Shown: piece by piece, positions 11,398 through 19,130 of the stretch
How the letters are laid out: each line of letters opens with the position of its first letter
Position numbering within the stretch: the first letter of the stretch is position 1
Notes under the pieces: generated by a model
Told to the model about the DNA's origin: nothing
Databases searched by the model: none
What the model saw: the letters and a program-made list of their open reading frames with translations, nothing else
From: Candidatus Iainarchaeum sp.
Lineage (GTDB): Archaea > Iainarchaeota > Iainarchaeia > Iainarchaeales > DTGL01
NCBI GenBank assembly: GCA_021163505.1
Contig: JAGGVE010000028.1
Span: 1 to 37,401 of the forward strand
DNA length: 37,401 nt
Direction: 5' to 3'
Position numbers and translations under genes: made by a program

Positions 11398-11569
11398 TGG
11401 GGCTGCTGGGATTTGAACCCAGGTCGCCAGCTGTTTTGGTCATCAAGGACCTTGTGGCAGTACAAAAACACTCCACTACGAACATCACTAGGTTGCTGGA
11501 GGTGTCGGAACCCGCTGGAGGTTCTGACTCCCAAAGCTGGAATGCTAGGCCAGGCTACACCACAGCCCC
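11398..11569 (-). tRNA. tRNA-Pro (UGG) with a 97-nt intron
   Basis: Exon 1 is 11530-11569, the intron 11433-11529, exon 2 11398-11432. The acceptor stem is GGGGCTG/CAGCCCC, the T arm CTGGG-TTCAAAT-CCCAG, and the spliced anticodon arm CCAGC-TTTGGGA-GCTGG (anticodon UGG, proline). The intron is at the canonical 37/38 site. A textbook bulge-helix-bulge forms: UUUG pairs with CAAA between 3-nt bulges GGA and ACA, flanked by the anticodon stem and an inner helix GUCA/UGAC. CCA is not encoded. The intron carries a repeat shared, in opposite orientation, with the tRNA-Trp intron. It sits upstream of the DNA ligase gene on the same strand. Confidence 0.95.
11491..11524 (-). repeat. shared intron repeat, copy in tRNA-Pro intron
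   Basis: This 34-nt segment matches 18897-18931 at 31 positions, differing only in a short central spacer (three versus four bases). Here the repeat is on the minus strand, the sense strand of the tRNA. In tRNA-Trp the same repeat is on the plus strand, antisense to that tRNA. It contains the stem GAACC / GGGTTC and two CCTCCAGC boxes. Confidence 0.9.
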
Positions 11570-11580
11570 ATTACAAAGAG

Positions 11581-11692
11581 TGGGCCCGACGGGATTCGAA
11601 CCCGCGACACCCAGGTTAAGAGCTTCACCCCGAAATCCCCAACTAACGTCAGAGAAATCGGTCTGGTGCTCTGCCTGCTGAGCTACGGGCCC
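11581..11692 (-). tRNA. tRNA-Lys (CUU) with a 39-nt intron at position 30/31
   Basis: Exon 1 is 11663-11692, the intron 11624-11662, exon 2 11581-11623. The acceptor stem is GGGCCCG/CGGGCCC, the D arm GCTC-AGCAGGCA-GAGC, the T arm GCGGG-TTCGAAT-CCCGT. The spliced anticodon arm CCAGG-CTCTTAA-CCTGG gives anticodon CUU (lysine). The intron interrupts the 5' strand of the anticodon stem between positions 30 and 31, not the usual 37/38. The precursor still makes a full bulge-helix-bulge: CACC/GGUG helix, 3-nt bulges AGA and AAG, inner helix CCGA/UCGG and outer helix GAG/CUC. Mature length 73 nt. Confidence 0.95.
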
Positions 11693-11758
11693 ATCACTAT
11701 TATTTAAAAGTGAAAGGATAATTTAAAAAGAGTTTCCAACAAATCACTGGTCTTTTAA

Positions 11759-13021
11759 TTATTCCTTTTTCTTCTTCGGCGGGATTAAAGGAAATAGGCC
11801 CTTTCCCTTTGGCATTTCTGGCTTTTGCTCCTCCTTTGCTTGCTCTCCTAACTGCTTTTCTAGTTTAGTTGGAACTGCTTGTTTTTCTGCTTCTTTTAGT
11901 TCGCTTGGTGGAGCTTCAGGCAATTTAATCTCTTGTTGGGGCTCTTCAGCCTTAATTTTCTCTGGTGGGACTGCTTGCTGTTTTTCCTCTGCTGCAATCT
12001 GCGTAGCTTCCCTTGTGCTTTCTTTAAATTCCTGCTGTTTTTTGGTTTCTATTTTAGAGGTTTTAACTTCCCTCACCTCAAGCTCCTCGCTTTCAGCTTC
12101 TTTTGGAACAACTACTTCTGGCTCTTCTGAAGGAGCTTCAATAGTGAATTCCTCTATATGCTCTTTCTTTTGCATTTTCTGCTTCGGAGCTTTCTCAACT
12201 TCTATTATTTCCTGGCCTTTAACTGTACCGCTAACTGGTCTTTGTTTTGCAAGATATGTTCTGCGTTTGAGATAACTTAGGACAAACCAAAGGAACCCTA
12301 TAGCAACTATAAAGGATAAGACAAAAGATAAGGAGAGCAAAACACTGCTTAAAATGACATTTGGCTGTGTTTTAGTCGAATCCTCACCTCTGAAGAGCCC
12401 GTAAACCTTTACCGAAATCTCGTGCTCGCCTACTGGAACAGGCTCAGGCAGTTCTGCGACATAATGGTCGTTTTCCTTTGAGAATTCGAGCTGAATTTTC
12501 TTACCATCAACAAAGAGATTCGCAGGCAATGTTTTTTCTTCCATTGGGGAGCCATCAATATAGTTTGCTTTTATTTTTATTTTATCCAGAGGTGATGAAA
12601 TAATTGCGCTACCAGAGGTTGGCTCTATAAGTTTGAGTTTTATTTCATCAGTAAGTCGAACTGGTCTGCTATTTGATGTGAAAACCTCAACATCGTTTTT
12701 GTAACCCTTCGCTTCAAACACAAGAGTTATGGTTTTAAGGTTGCGCATTTTTGGCATTGTCGCATTTAAAACAAAGGTATTTTCTGCTACACGGCTGAAA
12801 TATTTCTTTTGATTTACTTCAGGGATAAACATCGTGAGCTCGAGGTTTTTAATATTGGAGATGTCGTTTTCAAACCTTGCAGTAACCTTTATGGGCTGCC
12901 CATAATTCAGCTTTGCTGCTTCAAGAAGATTTGGTTCTAAAGTAAAGTTAAGGCTTGCGGCATGCAAGCTAGCAAAAATGCAGAGAAGCAAAACTAATAC
13001 TAAAGATTTTTTCGTTTGCAT
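11759..13021 (-). CDS. single-pass surface protein with long charged cytoplasmic tail
   Basis: 420 residues, no named family. A signal peptide (about 1-21, ending LHAAS) precedes a beta-rich ectodomain of about 200 residues. One membrane segment spans about 225-250 (SSVLLSLSFVLSFIVAIGFLW), and a cytoplasmic tail of about 168 residues rich in Glu, Lys, Pro and Gln ends in basic PPKKKKE. Its ectodomain resembles the membrane-proximal ectodomain of the 812-residue protein at 14513-16951: both have a (I/Q)KKYF segment followed by N-(F/A)-T and later LYLDGK/LFVDGK blocks. A box A about 25 bp upstream of the ATG suggests a leaderless mRNA. Confidence 0.8.
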   Translation of the reverse strand: MQTKKSLVLVLLLCIFASLHAASLNFTLEPNLLEAAKLNYGQPIKVTARFENDISNIKNLELTMFIPEVNQKKYFSRVAENTFVLNATMPKMRNLKTITLVFEAKGYKNDVEVFTSNSRPVRLTDEIKLKLIEPTSGSAIISSPLDKIKIKANYIDGSPMEEKTLPANLFVDGKKIQLEFSKENDHYVAELPEPVPVGEHEISVKVYGLFRGEDSTKTQPNVILSSVLLSLSFVLSFIVAIGFLWFVLSYLKRRTYLAKQRPVSGTVKGQEIIEVEKAPKQKMQKKEHIEEFTIEAPSEEPEVVVPKEAESEELEVREVKTSKIETKKQQEFKESTREATQIAAEEKQQAVPPEKIKAEEPQQEIKLPEAPPSELKEAEKQAVPTKLEKQLGEQAKEEQKPEMPKGKGLFPLIPPKKKKE

Positions 13022-13040
13022 CTAAAAAAATAGGGGATAG

Positions 13041-13052
13041 ATATTTATTAAC
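13041..13052 (-). promoter_or_regulatory. box A of the 420-residue surface protein gene
   Basis: TTAATAAATAT on the minus strand is centred about 25 bp upstream of the ATG, consistent with leaderless transcription. It lies 15 bp downstream of tRNA-Pro(GGG), so read-through from the tRNA is also possible. Confidence 0.5.
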
Positions 13053-13066
13053 CTTTCTATACAAAA

Positions 13067-13153
13067 TGGGGCCGCCGGGATTTGAACCCGGGTTGCCAGC
13101 ATATTGGATTCAACCCCAAGCTGGAGTGATAGACCAGGCTACACTACGGCCCC
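13067..13153 (-). tRNA. tRNA-Pro (GGG) with a 12-nt intron
   Basis: Exon 1 is 13114-13153, the intron 13102-13113, exon 2 13067-13101. The acceptor stem is GGGGCCG/CGGCCCC, the T arm CCGGG-TTCAAAT-CCCGG and the anticodon stem CCAGC/GCTGG, with anticodon GGG. Twelve extra bases follow position 37. UUGG pairs with CCAA between 3-nt bulges GGU and UAU, and the remaining UGAAU closes the inner loop, so the intron is a minimal bulge-helix-bulge without an inner helix. The mature tRNA would be 75 nt with U at position 38. A shift of the splice site by one base cannot be excluded. Confidence 0.92.
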
Positions 13154-13230
13154 AAAAACCAATATAAAAACCAGTTGTGCGAAAAATTAAAATAGGTTGA
13201 GAACAGCTGCCGCAAGCTTTTAAAAGGCAT

Positions 13231-13254
13231 AGAAAAAAATATAAAGGTTCAATA
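13231..13254 (+). promoter_or_regulatory. leaderless promoter sharing the TATAAA-TTCAA core
   Basis: A box A (AAATATAAAG, centre about 13241) lies about 28 bp before ATG 13270. The purine-rich AGAAAA preceding it and the TTCAA following it match the promoter-proximal arm of the palindromic elements at 20853, 21631 and 28521, though here no distal arm is present. This suggests a common promoter type. Confidence 0.55.
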
Positions 13255-13269
13255 TCTTTCTGTAAATAG

Positions 13270-13836
13270 ATGCACATAGAAAATCGTTTAGAACTGCTCA
13301 AAAATATGAGAATTATACTAAAACTATTTAGTGATAATAAGGAAATGGAGCTGAGAATAAAAGCAAATGAATTGATGAAAGAGGCCGTGCAAGAGAATAG
13401 CAGGCTTATTGCCCAGCAAAGCATCATCGCTTATGTCCTACATAAGATACTCACAAAAGAACATATTATAAAAGCAAGGACGTGGTCGAAAAACAAACGT
13501 GAAATAATAACGGTTCTTAAAAAACTTGTTCTTTATTTGGAGCACGATGATGCAAAAAAATTTGGGAAAACACTTGTGTCGTTACATAACAGAATAGAAC
13601 GCATAGACACCCGCTTTGGCAGGTTTGTTCAAAGCCTAATTGACAAAGCTCGGGTGAAGTATGCAAGCGATGCATACTTTTTAGGTGCATCATTGGGTCA
13701 GGCTGCAGCTCTTACTGGAGCGGATAAAAAAACACTGCTTGAATACATAGGCGCAACAAAACTGCATGATAAGGAAGAAAGAGGGAAGGGAATTGCTGAA
13801 AGGCTTGAAGCACTTAAGAAAGCATTGGGTGTATAG
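13270..13836 (+). CDS. helical protein paired with a PIN nuclease, unknown function
   Basis: 188 residues, largely alpha-helical and rich in Lys, Arg and Glu; I recognise no family. The first 130 residues look like a helical bundle, ending IDTRFGRFVQSLIDKAR. The last 55 contain LGQAAALTGADKKTLLEYIG and a basic helix (RLEALKKALGV). It has no signal peptide or membrane span. The gene is separated by two bases from the PIN-domain gene downstream, and both share one leaderless promoter. Such tight pairing suggests it controls or scaffolds the nuclease, as an antitoxin or as a processing partner; that is inference. Confidence 0.75.
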   Translation: MHIENRLELLKNMRIILKLFSDNKEMELRIKANELMKEAVQENSRLIAQQSIIAYVLHKILTKEHIIKARTWSKNKREIITVLKKLVLYLEHDDAKKFGKTLVSLHNRIERIDTRFGRFVQSLIDKARVKYASDAYFLGASLGQAAALTGADKKTLLEYIGATKLHDKEERGKGIAERLEALKKALGV

Positions 13837-13838
13837 CT

Positions 13839-14516
13839 ATGGAAAACATTTTTGTAGCTGACTCAAGCTCACTTATATCACTCTCAACTTCCTGTCTATT
13901 TGATATAATGAAAGACCTCTGTAAAGAGCTCAACATGCGTCTCATCATTTCAAAGGCTGTTTTAGATGAAAGCGTCAGGAATCCGCTCAGAATAAAAAGG
14001 TTTGAACTCAGTGCATTGAGGATAAATAAAGGCATTTCAGACGGCTGGCTAGAGGTAAAAGAGCTCTCAAAAGAGGAGCAACGCTTTGCAAGGGAGATTA
14101 TGAAAACAGCCAATAGCAGCTTTTTGTCAAAGCACGGTTATTTAAAAATAATACACCTTGGCGAATCAGAAATGCTTGCATTGGCAATAAGCATAAACGC
14201 TAAGGGGATAATCATTGACGAAAGAACAACGCGCATGATTATAGAAGAACCAGAAAAATTGCGAAGGCTTCTTCAGAAGAGGCAAGGGCAAAGGATTATT
14301 ATGAACAAAGAAAGAATAAAATTTTTTAAAAAGAACTTTGGAAAACTAACGATTGCACGCTCGAGCGAACTCATTGCATTAGCATATGAAAAAGGGTTAT
14401 TGCAGAAAGCGCTCGGAGAGAACAAAGAGGTGTTGAAAGCAGCGCTTTATTCTTTAAAATATAATGGCTGCTCGCTTAGCAGTGAGGAGATAGAACGCTT
14501 TGCAAGAAATGTCTAA
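13839..14516 (+). CDS. PIN-domain ribonuclease with DUF3368-like C-terminus
   Basis: PIN domains are metal-dependent RNases. The 225 residues show the acidic set in order: D8 in VADSSSLI, E44 in VLDESV, E109/E111 in LGESEMLALA and D127 in IIDERTTR. A C-terminal region (about 160-225) follows with GKLTIARSSELIALAYEKGLL and a final helical block, resembling DUF3368-type PIN proteins. It is the second gene of a pair with the 188-residue protein two bases upstream. It could be a VapC-like toxin or an RNA-processing enzyme; context does not decide. Its stop overlaps the convergent 812-residue gene by four bases. Confidence 0.85.
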   Translation: MENIFVADSSSLISLSTSCLFDIMKDLCKELNMRLIISKAVLDESVRNPLRIKRFELSALRINKGISDGWLEVKELSKEEQRFAREIMKTANSSFLSKHGYLKIIHLGESEMLALAISINAKGIIIDERTTRMIIEEPEKLRRLLQKRQGQRIIMNKERIKFFKKNFGKLTIARSSELIALAYEKGLLQKALGENKEVLKAALYSLKYNGCSLSSEEIERFARNV

Positions 14517-16951
14517 TATCTTTTTTCTTTGAAAATTTTCTCAATGACTGCAAGCGCAATGGTTGGCTTGTAGCCTTCAGCGATAAGTGCTCTAAAAAGC
14601 TCTCCAGCCTTATATTTCTCAGCCATTGGCTTGAGTATTCTATAAAGCCTATTTATCTCCGCAACATCTTCAGGCGAGAATGCTTCAGTTTGGGCTGCTG
14701 GAATCGCAGCGTGTTCTTCTTCCTTTTCAGGAACAATTTTTCTCTTTATTTCCATAAGCTCTTCTTTAGTTGAAAGCTTTTTTTGCGGCATAGGCTTTTG
14801 AGGTTGCACAACTTCTTCGGGCTTTGCTGGCTCAGCTTGCATAACCCTTCCTTTTTGTGAAACCGCTTTTGGACTCTTGACTATTGGTCGCTCCTCAACA
14901 CGCTTTTTTTCCTCAACTGCTCTTGGTGCCTTAACCTCTCGAAACTCCTTTTTTTCCTTAGGAATTTCCTCTTTAGGCTTCTCAGCAGGCTGTTTTGGAG
15001 GAAGCTTAGGCAAAGGCGCAACAACAATCTGCTTCAATGCAGATTTTCTTTTAGGTATAAGAGATCTGATTAAACCCGAAATGAAATGAGAAAAAGTAGG
15101 AGTGGCAGAAAGCCTCTCTTTTATTGTTTCCTTTTCGTTCTGAAGAAGAAGCATTTTTTCTTTGTATTGTTTCGGCGTAACTTTTCCTCTGAAAAGGTCT
15201 TTTTGCAAAAGATTCATCTTGTGCTCAAGCTGCACGATGCGATCGGACAATTTTAGTTGTTCAGTTCTCCATTGCATAAATCTGCTATATACAACATAAA
15301 CCAAAATACCCAAAATAGCTAATATTAGCAAGAACGTTACAACTGCGCTCCAAGCAGGTGGCTGAACGATATCCGCTTTTATTTCTTTAGTGCCACTGAA
15401 TGTTCCGGTAAGCACCAGTTTTAAAGTATGCGAATTTATCAAGGGTTCATCGAATTTGTAGAAGTAATAGCCTTTCTCCGGATCTTTTTCCAAAGTGATG
15501 TTCTTTCGCTTGCCATCCAAATAAAGAACTGCTTTGATTTCGGGGATTTTGACGAGAGAACCGTCAGGATAGCTAAGGCCAACCTTTAGCATATTATCTT
15601 CTTCAAAAACAGTGTTTGCTTTTCCTGCATCAATCGGATAAATAAAATCTATATTCAATAAATTTGTTGTTGAAATTGAATAAATCTCAAAATCTGCAAG
15701 CTCCTTGCCAGAAACAATGCCAGTTGCTATAATCTGCAATTCTGCGTTTTGCACTTGCCTAGAAGGAAAAGTGAAATTCAGAATATATTTGCTATCTTCT
15801 TTATTAAAATATTTCTTTATACGCAAAGCAGGAATTGCAAGGAAAACCTCTGCATTTTCGATCCCCGCTGTTGATCTTAGTTCTGTTTCTATTGTGACCT
15901 CTTGTCCGAACCCAAACTCTTTTCCACTCGAAAGTTCAGGCTGTAAAACAACAAGGTTAAAAAGCGGATTATCTTTTGAAATTGTAAATTCATATTCTTT
16001 TCGTTTGAGAATATTGCCATAACTATCTTTGCCCTCTAAAACCAGCGAGAATTTTTTTTCAATATCTTCTAAAGAAAATGCATGCTCAAATTTTGCGGAA
16101 AACGTATTATCTTTCTTGGCAAGCTTTGTTTTTTCTATAATATTAGAATCGCTTATTATACTCGCGTAGAATTCACCTGATGTAACAGAACTATTATCTG
16201 GATAGAGTATCTGCGTCTCTATCTCGCCCAAAGGCACGCCTATGTACACTTTTTTATCGCGTATTGGATTTGATGGAATCTCAAGCTCCGCACTGCTGAA
16301 GTAGATAGGAAGCTTTGTTTCAAATTTCTGATAGCCCCTGCCAAGATTTGCTTCTATACTGATATCTAAAAACTCAACGTAGTTGAAATAAAACCTCGGA
16401 GAAAGCTCTACCCTATAAAGTCCAACGCCTTCCTGCGAAATAGAAGGTTTTTCACCCTTGATAGACACATCTATGTTTCTTATCTTTGATTGATCCAGTA
16501 TGTTGTCATAACAATCGAGAACTTCAAAGCTAAGCATTATTGGCTCTGATTTGCTATGTAGCTTAAAAAATTCCGGCCCAAATGGTTTTATCTTTGCACT
16601 TCCGCTCCTTGCTCTTTTTACTTTAACGGTAACGCTCTGCACATCAAAGGCTTCGCCATCACTCACAACAACGCTAACTTGAAATTCTTTGGAGTACGCA
16701 GTATCATCAATATAAAAAACATGATATGCTTTAGGCTCCGTTAGCTGAAGTTTTTCAGAATTATCACCAAAACTCCAGGTGTAGGTGAGGTTCTCAGCAT
16801 CGCCATCTACAACAACGCTTGCTTCAAAAAGCTCGCCTTCAGTAAGCGATGTTTTGTTCGTTTTAAGCCCAGCTATGCTCCAAGAAGCGCTCTGAACACT
16901 AACACTAAGGAGCAGAAAAAACAATACGAAAGGAATGTAGCGTGTGGACAT
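14513..16951 (-). CDS. large PKD-containing surface protein with coiled-coil cytoplasmic tail
   Basis: 812 residues. A signal peptide (1-21) is followed by a PKD-like domain (about 35-115, with TYTWSFGDNSE), then several beta-sandwich-like repeats to about 530. One membrane span (about 535-557) precedes a coiled coil (LSDRIVQLEHKMNLLQKDL), a proline/lysine/glutamate-rich linker and a conserved-looking C-terminal helical domain (last about 55 residues, EDVAEINRLYRILKP). The membrane-proximal ectodomain is related to that of the 420-residue protein at 11759-13021. Likely a cell-surface receptor or adhesin whose tail docks a cytoplasmic partner; function is inference. Box A 29 bp upstream suggests a leaderless mRNA. 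Confidence 0.85.
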   Translation of the reverse strand: MSTRYIPFVLFFLLLSVSVQSASWSIAGLKTNKTSLTEGELFEASVVVDGDAENLTYTWSFGDNSEKLQLTEPKAYHVFYIDDTAYSKEFQVSVVVSDGEAFDVQSVTVKVKRARSGSAKIKPFGPEFFKLHSKSEPIMLSFEVLDCYDNILDQSKIRNIDVSIKGEKPSISQEGVGLYRVELSPRFYFNYVEFLDISIEANLGRGYQKFETKLPIYFSSAELEIPSNPIRDKKVYIGVPLGEIETQILYPDNSSVTSGEFYASIISDSNIIEKTKLAKKDNTFSAKFEHAFSLEDIEKKFSLVLEGKDSYGNILKRKEYEFTISKDNPLFNLVVLQPELSSGKEFGFGQEVTIETELRSTAGIENAEVFLAIPALRIKKYFNKEDSKYILNFTFPSRQVQNAELQIIATGIVSGKELADFEIYSISTTNLLNIDFIYPIDAGKANTVFEEDNMLKVGLSYPDGSLVKIPEIKAVLYLDGKRKNITLEKDPEKGYYFYKFDEPLINSHTLKLVLTGTFSGTKEIKADIVQPPAWSAVVTFLLILAILGILVYVVYSRFMQWRTEQLKLSDRIVQLEHKMNLLQKDLFRGKVTPKQYKEKMLLLQNEKETIKERLSATPTFSHFISGLIRSLIPKRKSALKQIVVAPLPKLPPKQPAEKPKEEIPKEKKEFREVKAPRAVEEKKRVEERPIVKSPKAVSQKGRVMQAEPAKPEEVVQPQKPMPQKKLSTKEELMEIKRKIVPEKEEEHAAIPAAQTEAFSPEDVAEINRLYRILKPMAEKYKAGELFRALIAEGYKPTIALAVIEKIFKEKRY

Positions 16952-16974
16952 ACACTTAAAATTTAATGTTTTCC

Positions 16975-16986
16975 TATTAATAAATC
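16975..16986 (-). promoter_or_regulatory. box A of the 812-residue surface protein gene
   Basis: GATTTATTAATA on the minus strand lies about 29 bp upstream of ATG 16951, compatible with transcription starting at the start codon. Confidence 0.5.
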
Positions 16987-17028
16987 TTTTTCTTTCGGCA
17001 CGAGCAATTCAATAATGAGTTTTACAGG

Positions 17029-18474
17029 CTAATATGCTCTGGCAAAGTAGCTTTTGCGCTTTGCTGGTTTGCCGCAAAAGAAGCATTTAGCATCTGCCTC
17101 CTTCTGATCCAAAGGAATAACCCTGTTAGTTGCTGCACTCTGCTTCTTAATCGCTTTTTCGCACTTAGGGGTCTCACAGAAGTAGCCATAAGCCATTTTG
17201 CCTGCCTTTATCGCTTTTAAGAATTCCTCCCTATTGTTTACTTCAACAGTGTTTTCCTGCAAAAACTTCTTTGCTTTTTCGAAGAGCGCTTTTTGAATAG
17301 TTTCCAAAGTTTCTTTCACTTTACCTTCGATCTCGCTCAAAGGAACAACTATCTTTTCATTGTTATCGCGTCTTACAAGTACTGCTTGCTTCTTCTGCAA
17401 ATCTTTTGGACCAAGTTCTATCCTCAGCGGGATTCCATAAAGCTCCCATTCATTAAATTTCCAGCCAGGTGTATACTGCTCGCGGTCATCAACTATAGGG
17501 CTGAATTCAGCCAATCTTTTTGCAAGTTCTCTGCACTTTTCAAGCACTTTTTTCTTTGAATCAGCAAAGTATATAGGCACTATAACCAACTTATTTTCAG
17601 CAATTTTTGGTGGAATTATTGCACCTTTATCATCACCATGCACTAAAACCATCGCACCAATTAGCCTTGTACTTATCCCCCAGCTGGTTTGCCAAACATA
17701 CTTTTTCTTCCCATTCGCATCTAAAAACTTTATTCCGAATGCTTTCGCAAAGTTTTGTCCAAGAAAATGTGATGTGCCCATCTGCAATGCTCTGCCACTA
17801 GGCATTAGCGCTTCCATTGTGAAAGTATACTCCGCGCCTGGAAACTTTTCAAGCTCTGTTTTCTTGCCTGCTACAACAGGTATTGCTAAGTAGTTTTCTA
17901 TCAGATCAATATACTCCTTTAAAATTGTGAGTGCCTCTTTCTCTGCTTCCTCACGAGTAGCGTGAGCGGTATGTCCTTCTTGCCAGAGAAATTCGCGTGT
18001 TCTTAAAAAAGGTTTTGGATGCTTGAATTCCCAGCGCACTACGCTACACCACTGATTCAGAAGCAATGGCAGGTCTCTATGCGAGCGAATCCACTTAGCG
18101 TAGCTTTCATAGAAAATAGTTTCGCTTGTTGGCCTTACCGCTAACCTTTCCTCGAGCTTTTTAGCACCTGCTCTTTCAACCCAAGCTACTTCTGGTTCAA
18201 AGCCTTCAACATGCTCTTTTTCCTTATCAAAAAGATGCTCCGGGATAAAAAGCGGGAAGTAAACATTTTTGTGCCCCAAACGCTTTATCTTTTTATTGAA
18301 TATTTCCTGAATTTTTTCCCATATTGCATAAGCGTTGGGCCTAATAACCATACAACCGCTAACGCTTGTATAGTCAGCAAACTTTGCTTTCTGTATTACT
18401 TGCGAATACCATTCACTAATATTTTCTTCTTTCTTAACTGTAATTCCAAGCTGCTTCTTTGCATCTTCTACCAT
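17029..18474 (-). CDS. proS: prolyl-tRNA synthetase, archaeal type
   Basis: Charges tRNA-Pro; both tRNA-Pro genes in this window are its substrates. With ATG 18474 it has 481 residues. Class II features are clear: VAWVERAG, VRPTSETIFYESYAKWIRSH, the motif 2 region RWEFKHPKPFLRTREFLWQEGHTAH and the proline-site region PGAEYTFTMEALMPSGRALQMGTSH. The C-terminal zinc domain has C-x4-C and C-x2-C and ends in Tyr, as in archaeal/eukaryotic ProRS. A GTG at 18483 would add three residues, but a GGTG motif overlapping it lies six bases before ATG 18474, so the ATG is preferred. Confidence 0.96.
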   Translation of the reverse strand: MVEDAKKQLGITVKKEENISEWYSQVIQKAKFADYTSVSGCMVIRPNAYAIWEKIQEIFNKKIKRLGHKNVYFPLFIPEHLFDKEKEHVEGFEPEVAWVERAGAKKLEERLAVRPTSETIFYESYAKWIRSHRDLPLLLNQWCSVVRWEFKHPKPFLRTREFLWQEGHTAHATREEAEKEALTILKEYIDLIENYLAIPVVAGKKTELEKFPGAEYTFTMEALMPSGRALQMGTSHFLGQNFAKAFGIKFLDANGKKKYVWQTSWGISTRLIGAMVLVHGDDKGAIIPPKIAENKLVIVPIYFADSKKKVLEKCRELAKRLAEFSPIVDDREQYTPGWKFNEWELYGIPLRIELGPKDLQKKQAVLVRRDNNEKIVVPLSEIEGKVKETLETIQKALFEKAKKFLQENTVEVNNREEFLKAIKAGKMAYGYFCETPKCEKAIKKQSAATNRVIPLDQKEADAKCFFCGKPAKRKSYFARAY

Positions 18475-18500
18475 TGTGCGCACCTAAACCAAAAATCTGT

Positions 18501-18593
18501 TTATTTGTCTATATGTTTAAAAACTTCAACAAAGCCCAACTTTTTAAGTACTTTAATTAACTTTTTTGGTGTAAGCTCGCCAGAAAAGGACAA
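18501..18593 (-). pseudogene. hicA: truncated hicA toxin remnant
   Basis: Directly after the hicB stop, a minus-strand frame that could start at TTG 18593 reads about 30 codons. It contains FSGELTPKKLIKVLKKLGF, a clear match to the N-terminus of HicA (usual form SGKE(L/V)IKxLKKxGF). A stop then follows before the catalytic histidine and the GSHH region. HicA proteins are normally about 60-80 residues, so roughly the second half is lost and no RNase activity is expected. Only two bases separate it from the hicB stop. Too short for ordinary gene calling. Confidence 0.75.
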
Positions 18594-18595
18594 AA

Positions 18596-18805
18596 CTACA
18601 CCTCTACTACTTGAACGCCAATAAACTTACTCTTAGGAATTTCTCTTTCTTCTTCAAGACAAAGTTCTATAACTTCTTTTATCCGTTTAAGAAGCTCGTC
18701 CATTGTTCTTGCCTGTGTGTGGCACCCCTGAAGCTCCGGGACATCAGCAACCAACCAACCATTATTATCTCGCTCAATAATGACTGTGAATTTTTTTTCC
18801 ACCAT
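18596..18805 (-). CDS. hicB: HicB-family antitoxin, orphaned
   Basis: HicB neutralises the HicA mRNA interferase. The 69 residues (MVEKKF start) show the HicB partial RNase H-like fold: FTVIIERDNNGWLVADVPELQGCHTQARTMDELLKRIKEVIELCLEE. No C-terminal DNA-binding domain is present, as in short archaeal HicB proteins. A GTG at 18814 would add three residues, but GTGAT lies five bases before ATG 18805. The partner downstream is truncated, so HicB now has no intact toxin here. It sits between tRNA-Trp and proS. Confidence 0.9.
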   Translation of the reverse strand: MVEKKFTVIIERDNNGWLVADVPELQGCHTQARTMDELLKRIKEVIELCLEEEREIPKSKFIGVQVVEV

Positions 18806-18892
18806 ATTTATCACTTAAAAATATTGGAAAAGAGGTTTAAAAATAGATGGGGTCACCGGGATTTGAACCCGGACTAGCAGGTGACTCCCAAC

Positions 18893-18975
18893 ATAGGAAC
18901 CTCCAGCGGGTTCCTATTACCTCCAGCAACCCTATATTGCCTATAGGAACCTCTGTAACCGCAAGCGGTTCCTAT
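18893..18975. repeat. tandem ATAGGAACC hairpin units in the tRNA-Trp intron
   Basis: Two units 50 bp apart each contain ATAGGAACC and GGTTCCTAT, giving identical 9-bp stems (18893-18901 with 18909-18917; 18943-18951 with 18967-18975) and loops of 7 and 15 nt. Both are followed by TACCT. A weaker third stem, GGAAC/GTTCC, lies at 18991-19006. The array makes up much of the intron. Confidence 0.9.
18897..18931 (+). repeat. shared intron repeat, copy in tRNA-Trp intron
   Basis: This 35-nt segment matches the tRNA-Pro(UGG) intron segment 11491-11524 at 31 positions, but in the opposite orientation relative to the host tRNA. As RNA the two introns are therefore complementary: blocks of 13 and 18 bp around a 3 x 4 nt internal loop. 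Confidence 0.9.
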
Positions 18976-19026
18976 TACCTTGGCTGCGTGGGAACCGCCA
19001 TGTTCCTCGTTCTCACCTGCTTGTCG

Positions 19027-19055
19027 TCATCGCTCATAAGAGCTCAGTGCTCCAG
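19027..19055 (-). ncRNA. candidate box C/D guide element in the tRNA-Trp intron (target C34)
   Basis: On the RNA strand an antisense element CUGGAGC (19055-19049) is followed by one base and the D'-type box CUGA (19047-19044). Then come a GCUC-UUAU-GAGC hairpin and GAUGA (19031-19027), a C'-like box. The antisense element pairs with positions 31-37 of tRNA-Trp, and the fifth base upstream of CUGA pairs exactly with C34, as the D+5 rule requires. This matches the known function of the euryarchaeal tRNA-Trp intron. A clear partner C box was not found, so the sRNA may be degenerate or act as a circle. Confidence 0.5.
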
Positions 19056-19130
19056 TTGAATATGACTGGAGCCTGCTGGGCTGCCTGGTTACCCCATGAC
19101 CCCACACAATAGAATATGGTTTGCAGGTTT

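What the first reader, a model, noticed from the sequence alone, without database searches (positions are those of the whole stretch)
11433..19065. Two tRNA introns share one repeat in opposite orientation and are complementary as RNAs
The tRNA-Pro(UGG) intron segment 11491-11524 and tRNA-Trp intron segment 18897-18931 match at 31 positions. Because the repeat is sense in one precursor and antisense in the other, and both genes are on the minus strand, the two RNAs could form duplexes of 13 and 18 bp around a 3x4 loop. Either a small mobile or convertible element inserted into both introns, or the introns are kept complementary for function, for example co-regulating splicing or forming a joint RNP.
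Basis: seen in the sequence. Interest (0 to 1): 0.8.

Follow-up and report, generated by a model that had tools for sequence, protein, structure and literature searches.

The report
Mobile hairpin repeat in tRNA introns
The two complementary tRNA introns are two copies, in opposite directions, of a 39-base hairpin repeat that sits in or beside many tRNA genes of distantly related archaea, so their pairing is probably a side effect, while the repeat itself looks like a small, undescribed mobile element that helps to build tRNA introns.

Summary
The shared segment is real: 11491-11524 and 18897-18931 match at 31 positions (13+18) in opposite orientation, inside the tRNA-Pro(UGG) and tRNA-Trp introns. 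It is not a private pair but one family of about 39 bp, GGTTGCTGGAGRTNATARGAACC-CGCTGGA-GGTTCYTAT, whose second half is a 9-bp hairpin kept by compensatory changes. The genome has about 10 strong sites, three in tRNA introns (Pro, Trp, Asp). Two sister species lack the Trp copy, and their Pro copies vary without compensation. "Kept complementary" is not supported; complementarity follows from opposite insertion.

The family itself is the finding. Copies occur in 4 of 5 Diapherotrites species of the genus, in DHVE2/Aciduliprofundum MAGs (39 nt identical to a Diapherotrites copy) and in a Pacearchaeon. In all three groups they lie at the 5' end of canonical 37/38 tRNA introns, starting at intron nt 1-3 with the BHB motif intact. 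Others end 1-2 nt before a tRNA, or stand before a displaced duplicate of a tRNA or elp3 3' end. In a DHVE2 tRNA the 47-nt intron is almost only the repeat. I read it as a horizontally spread miniature mobile hairpin biased to tRNA genes. No mobilising enzyme was identified.

The parts
11398..11569 (-). tRNA-Pro(UGG) gene, intron at 37/38
   Evidence: cmscan RF00005 41.6 bits; ARAGORN with introns; BHB model 5/5 stem, 4/4 central helix, 4-bp inner helix
11433..11529 (-). tRNA-Pro intron, 97 nt
11491..11529 (+). Hairpin repeat copy, antisense to the tRNA; the hairpin end abuts the 5' exon (hairpin starts at intron nt 2)
   Evidence: R1 58.1 bits; coordinates
18848..19103 (-). tRNA-Trp(CCA) gene, intron at 37/38
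   Evidence: ARAGORN with introns, exon coordinates; not found by Rfam or default ARAGORN
18883..19065 (-). tRNA-Trp intron, 183 nt
18892..18931 (-). Hairpin repeat copy (unit 2), sense to the tRNA, hairpin end 9 nt from the 3' splice site
   Evidence: R1 66 bits; absent from G002 and G004 Trp introns
18941..18979 (-). Second, long-loop unit of the same family in tandem
   Evidence: R1 18.1 bits; the two-unit stretch matches a G004 copy at 83%
19024..19055 (-). Probable intronic box C/D guide (CTGGAGCA-CTGA pairs with CTCCAG around C34; GATGACGA C-like box)
   Evidence: read from sequence; own knowledge of archaeal tRNA-Trp introns

Best explanation
The shared segment is one member of a dispersed family of short hairpin repeats of about 39 bp, sometimes in tandem 32-bp steps. 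It behaves like a non-autonomous mobile element with a strong preference for tRNA genes: 37/38 introns, the base before tRNA nt 1, and the T-loop/3' end. It was inserted into the Pro intron and the Trp intron at different times and in opposite orientations, so the two pre-tRNAs are complementary by construction. Inserted in an intron it is tolerated because the bulge-helix-bulge motif stays intact and splicing removes it; in some DHVE2 tRNAs it makes up most of the intron. Shown: family, distribution, hairpin, positions, orientation, presence/absence, flanking duplications at some sites. Inferred: that copies move as DNA by a recombinase supplied in trans, that tRNA arms are the target, and that transfer between phyla was horizontal.
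For: About 10 strong genomic sites, 3 of them in tRNA introns, which are about 0.9% of non-coding DNA (binomial P about 9e-5, from an approximate coding density and 35 tRNAs). Hairpin supported by covariation: 55 cells with double changes against 21.5 in shuffles, 91.5% of cells paired. Trp copy absent in two sister species; Pro copy present in G000, G002, G003, absent in G001. Same family in DHVE2 MAGs (3-21 matches each) and a Pacearchaeon (5), with identical stretches of 39 nt (Diapherotrites-DHVE2) and 36 nt (DHVE2-Pacearchaeon). Same target reached repeatedly: introns of Pro, Asp and Gln in Diapherotrites, of Gln and a UGG-reading tRNA in DHVE2, one in the Pacearchaeon, with a 4/4 BHB central helix and the repeat at intron nt 1-3. 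tRNA-Ser copies are followed by a duplicate of the tRNA from T-loop to 3' end (21 bp exact in G003), elp3 copies by a duplicate of the elp3 3' end.
Against: No duplication is seen at intron sites, at tRNA-Cys or at the other intergenic sites, and duplication lengths vary (9-33 bp), unlike a fixed target-site duplication. No mobilising enzyme found: Y1 transposase (PF01797) is absent from all 11 genomes searched; other recombinases were not tested. The consistent intron orientation and hairpin position could also reflect selection at RNA level. No copy in viral contigs, phages or plasmids with the patterns used.
Confidence: 0.72

Rival explanations
1. Functional RNA-RNA pairing: the Pro and Trp introns are kept complementary to co-regulate splicing or form a joint RNP.
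For: Predicted duplex of -68.5 kcal/mol against about -31 for the two separate folds.
Against: Trp introns of G002 and G004 lack the repeat; the G002 and G003 Pro copies vary without compensation. The same complementarity exists between any two opposite copies among about 10 in the genome. Each strand folds on itself.
Confidence: 0.03
2. RNA-processing element: the hairpin is selected in pre-tRNAs (leader, intron, trailer) to guide or protect processing, and spreads by duplication and gene conversion rather than as a mobile element.
For: Hairpin kept by compensation; it abuts mature tRNA ends or splice sites; in DHVE2 many copies lie 45-230 nt 3' of tRNA genes, always in tRNA orientation.
Against: Both orientations occur in introns; copies also lie where no tRNA is in reach (upstream of metK, between the L11 and L1 ribosomal protein genes, 3' of elp3); orthologous tRNAs do without it.
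Confidence: 0.13
3. Archaeal tRNA intron transposition of the Thermoproteales kind: whole introns copied between tRNA genes via their BHB motif, with intergenic copies being escaped introns.
For: Near-identical intron parts in different tRNAs; BHB intact; DHVE2 47-nt introns are almost only the repeat.
Against: Most copies lie outside tRNA introns; in Pro, Asp and Trp the repeat is only part of a longer intron.
Confidence: 0.1

Closest known systems
[quoted passage not shown] 2010, as reviewed in PMC4090602)
   Same: Very similar intron sequences in different tRNAs; BHB kept; mechanism unknown
   Different: Here the repeat is a short hairpin that also lies outside tRNA genes, in both orientations, in three groups of archaea outside Thermoproteales, and is often only part of the intron
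REP/REPIN palindromes mobilised by RAYT (Y1) transposases
   Same: Short imperfect hairpin with a conserved flank, mostly intergenic, dispersed, sometimes tandem
   Different: No Y1 transposase in any host searched; strong tRNA-intron association
tRNA-targeting integrative elements (archaeal tyrosine recombinases, PMC8371274)
   Same: Same tRNA sublocations (anticodon loop, T-loop, 3' end); displaced 3' fragment of the gene behind the insert (tRNA-Ser, elp3)
   Different: Insert of only about 60-150 bp with no gene; introns instead of a restored tRNA
Casposons, family 2 (Aciduliprofundum boonei, PMC6614799)
   Same: tRNA targeting in the same DHVE2 lineage; target duplication
   Different: 14-15 bp duplications, terminal inverted repeats and Cas1; here a hairpin without paired ends and duplications of other lengths at some sites only
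Introner elements of eukaryotes
   Same: A repeat that comes to constitute introns
   Different: Spliceosomal introns of mRNA; here tRNA introns cut by the splicing endonuclease; the comparison is an analogy

Membership tests
REP/RAYT palindromic repeat | dispersed short imperfect hairpin with conserved flank | tested here: met
REP/RAYT palindromic repeat | Y1 (RAYT) transposase in hosts | tested here: not met
   PF01797 absent in G000 and 10 other genomes (incomplete MAGs); control genomes respond
MITE | terminal inverted repeats plus fixed-length target duplication | tested here: not met
   one hairpin; duplications only at tRNA-Ser, elp3 and a Gly tRNA, of variable length
MITE | related autonomous transposon | tested here: inconclusive
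   only PF01797 searched; hosts are incomplete MAGs
Thermoproteales-type tRNA intron transposition | similar introns in different tRNA genes with BHB intact | tested here: met
Thermoproteales-type tRNA intron transposition | the unit is the intron, confined to tRNA genes | tested here: not met
   most copies are outside introns
tRNA-targeting integrative element | displaced fragment of the target gene behind the insert | tested here: met
   met at tRNA-Ser in G003 (21 bp exact), G002 and G004 (12 bp), and at elp3 in G000 and G002; not met at intron sites
tRNA-targeting integrative element | integrase acting on it | not tested
Casposon | Cas1-solo integrase, TIRs, 14-15 bp TSD | tested here: not met
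   no TIR pair, other duplication lengths; Cas1 not searched
Curated RNA family (Rfam 15) | match to a covariance model at the repeat | tested here: not met
   only tRNA and 5S rRNA matches

The most novel reading that the evidence does not exclude
The repeat is a prokaryotic counterpart of introners: a mobile hairpin that inserts at nt 37/38 of tRNA genes and thereby creates or rebuilds canonical archaeal tRNA introns, and it has crossed between Diapherotrites, DHVE2 Thermoplasmatota and Pacearchaeota, perhaps along host-symbiont contacts.
Probability: 0.3. Interest if true: 0.87.

Novelty: new variant of a known kind. Interest (0 to 1): 0.62.

Why it matters
How archaeal tRNA introns arise and spread is an open question. 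A short repeat of defined sequence that recurs at the same nucleotide of different tRNA introns in three archaeal groups, with sister genomes that differ in its presence, makes intron gain by insertion directly testable. It would also give a sequence tag for DNA exchange between DPANN archaea and Thermoplasmatota.

Tried and rejected
Centring a relatives search on a DHVE2 locus was not accepted; handles were used as the tool describes. Rfam searches of the repeat loci gave only tRNAs and 5S. REP/RAYT: no Y1 transposase. Viral, phage and plasmid collections: no match. CRISPR repeat: rejected, the tandem copies have no spacers. Casposon: considered because A. boonei casposons hit tRNA-Pro (PMC6614799), rejected on ends and duplication length. 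Anti-Shine-Dalgarno-like ATCACCTCC inside the antisense strand: dropped, most copies vary there. An R1 match at C25 appears to lie in coding sequence and was discarded.

Full report
Observation. The tRNA-Pro(UGG) intron is 11433-11529 and the tRNA-Trp intron 18883-19065, both on the minus strand. Plus strand 11491-11524 and the reverse complement of 18897-18931 match 13 + 18 bases around a 3/4-base difference, as reported. The 18-mer is the longest distant inverted repeat of the window; one of 40 shuffles also reached 18, but the composite pattern has no reversed-control match in the genome.

It is a repeat family. Searching the own genome (G000, 959 kb, 93.6% complete) gave further copies. 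A covariance model R1 built from ten copies finds ten strong sites in G000: the Trp and Pro introns, the tRNA-Asp intron (L026, two units), 1 nt before tRNA-Cys (L008), 3' of a tRNA-Ser (L010; ARAGORN calls it Thr because of its intron), 3' of elp3 (L001), upstream of metK (L007), between the L11 and L1 ribosomal protein genes (L028), and two other intergenic sites (L009, L022). Gene names here rest on reading the translations. Consensus: GGTTGCTGGAGRTNATARGAACC-CGCTGGA-GGTTCYTAT. The stem of 9 pairs is supported by double changes over 103 distinct copies (55 cells against 21.5 in shuffles; slid controls far lower), with the caveat that this alignment was fitted to the model; the unfitted alignment of ten copies points the same way.

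The tRNA-Trp introns of G002 (71 nt) and G004 (94 nt) lack the repeat; G001 has an unrelated long intron. tRNA-Pro(UGG) has the repeat in G000, G002 and G003, a degenerate form in G004, and a 13-nt intron without it in G001. The G002 Pro copy has a GCAAGC loop, and G003 has CTCCGGCGG for CTCCAGCGG. No partner change in a Trp copy accompanies these. The two insertions therefore look independent, and the complementarity (predicted duplex -68.5 kcal/mol) is a by-product of opposite orientation.

Distribution. Strong matches occur in 4 of 5 species of the genus and in one genome of another family of the order, among 87 genomes of the phylum. An exact-pattern scan of about 85,000 species found it otherwise only in DHVE2/Aciduliprofundum MAGs and a Pacearchaeon. 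R1 gives 3-21 matches in each of five DHVE2-type MAGs and 5 in the Pacearchaeon. A Diapherotrites and a DHVE2 copy share 39 identical bases; DHVE2 and Pacearchaeota copies share 36. Misbinning cannot be excluded for single contigs, but all five DHVE2-type MAGs carry it, with a subfamily of their own (GCAGGAGGTTATAGGAACYCGCTGGTGGTTCCTA), part of it inside tRNA genes. Weaker variants next to or inside tRNAs also occur in other genomes of the order (G007, G012, G021).

Position. Of 21 element-bearing introns examined (orthologues included, so not independent), 19 have the repeat antisense to the tRNA; in 18 of these the hairpin starts at intron nt 1-3 (the L075 copy is degenerate). The other two, Trp in G000 and Ser in G004, have the other orientation with the hairpin end near the 3' splice site. 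Every intron that could be modelled has 5/5 anticodon-stem and 4/4 central-helix pairs; the G004 Ser intron could not be modelled, and for Trp the script is one base off the true 37/38 site. In DHVE2 tRNA-Gln (51-53 nt) and a UGG-reading tRNA (47 nt; ARAGORN's isotype calls are unreliable here) the repeat is most of the intron. The hairpin end also abuts tRNA-Cys (1 nt) and tRNA-His (2 nt, Pacearchaeon). Three of ten own-genome sites lie in introns that are about 0.9% of non-coding DNA (P about 9e-5, approximate). In DHVE2 many more copies lie 45-230 nt downstream of tRNAs, always in the tRNA's orientation.

Duplications. Behind the hairpin end at tRNA-Ser stands a copy of the tRNA from T-loop to 3' end: 21 bp exact in G003, 33 columns in G002, 12 bp in G004, 9 bp in G000 (the last within noise). 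Behind the elp3 copies stands a copy of the elp3 3' end (35 columns in G000, 20 in G002), and a variant in G012 has 24 columns at a Gly tRNA. The arrangement (complete gene, insert, displaced 3' fragment) is that of tRNA-targeting integrative elements (PMC8371274). Intron sites, tRNA-Cys and other sites show no clear duplication.

Mechanism. I consider a DNA-level, non-autonomous hairpin element most likely, attracted to tRNA arms and tolerated in introns because the splicing endonuclease needs only the BHB. The enzyme is unknown: Y1 transposase is absent; tyrosine recombinases and Cas1 were not searched. RNA-level selection of the hairpin in precursors remains possible.

Novelty. The literature searches made found no description of this repeat; the library is partial. 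Closest are the tRNA intron transposition of Thermoproteales (PMC4090602) and the model of tRNA disruption by integrating elements (PMC3293823). I file it as a new variant of a known kind, not as a member of the REP, MITE or casposon families, since a defining feature of each was tested and not met.

Noticed in passing
window 11581-11692 (-): tRNA-Lys(CUU) with a non-canonical intron of about 40 nt in the anticodon stem; the G002 orthologue is uninterrupted, suggesting recent gain or loss.
   Followed up: partly
L010, L054, L061 (tRNA-Ser introns and flank) and DHVE2 loci L100, L105, L107, L158, L163, L185, L196: A second hairpin repeat shared by Diapherotrites and DHVE2: CTTTCTTT..AAAGAAAG-GTG-N-CCCCAAAGAAA, again in tRNA introns or near tRNAs (0 matches in shuffled sequence).
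   Followed up: partly
window 19024-19055 (-): The Trp intron keeps a box C/D-like guide against C34 beside the inserted repeats.
   Followed up: no
L061 (G003:C17:7798-7935): Four tandem steps of 32 bp of the repeat between a tRNA-Ser and its displaced 3' fragment.
   Followed up: partly
L055 (G022:C4:70419-70460): Single strong copy in a genome of another family of the order; context not worked out.
   Followed up: no
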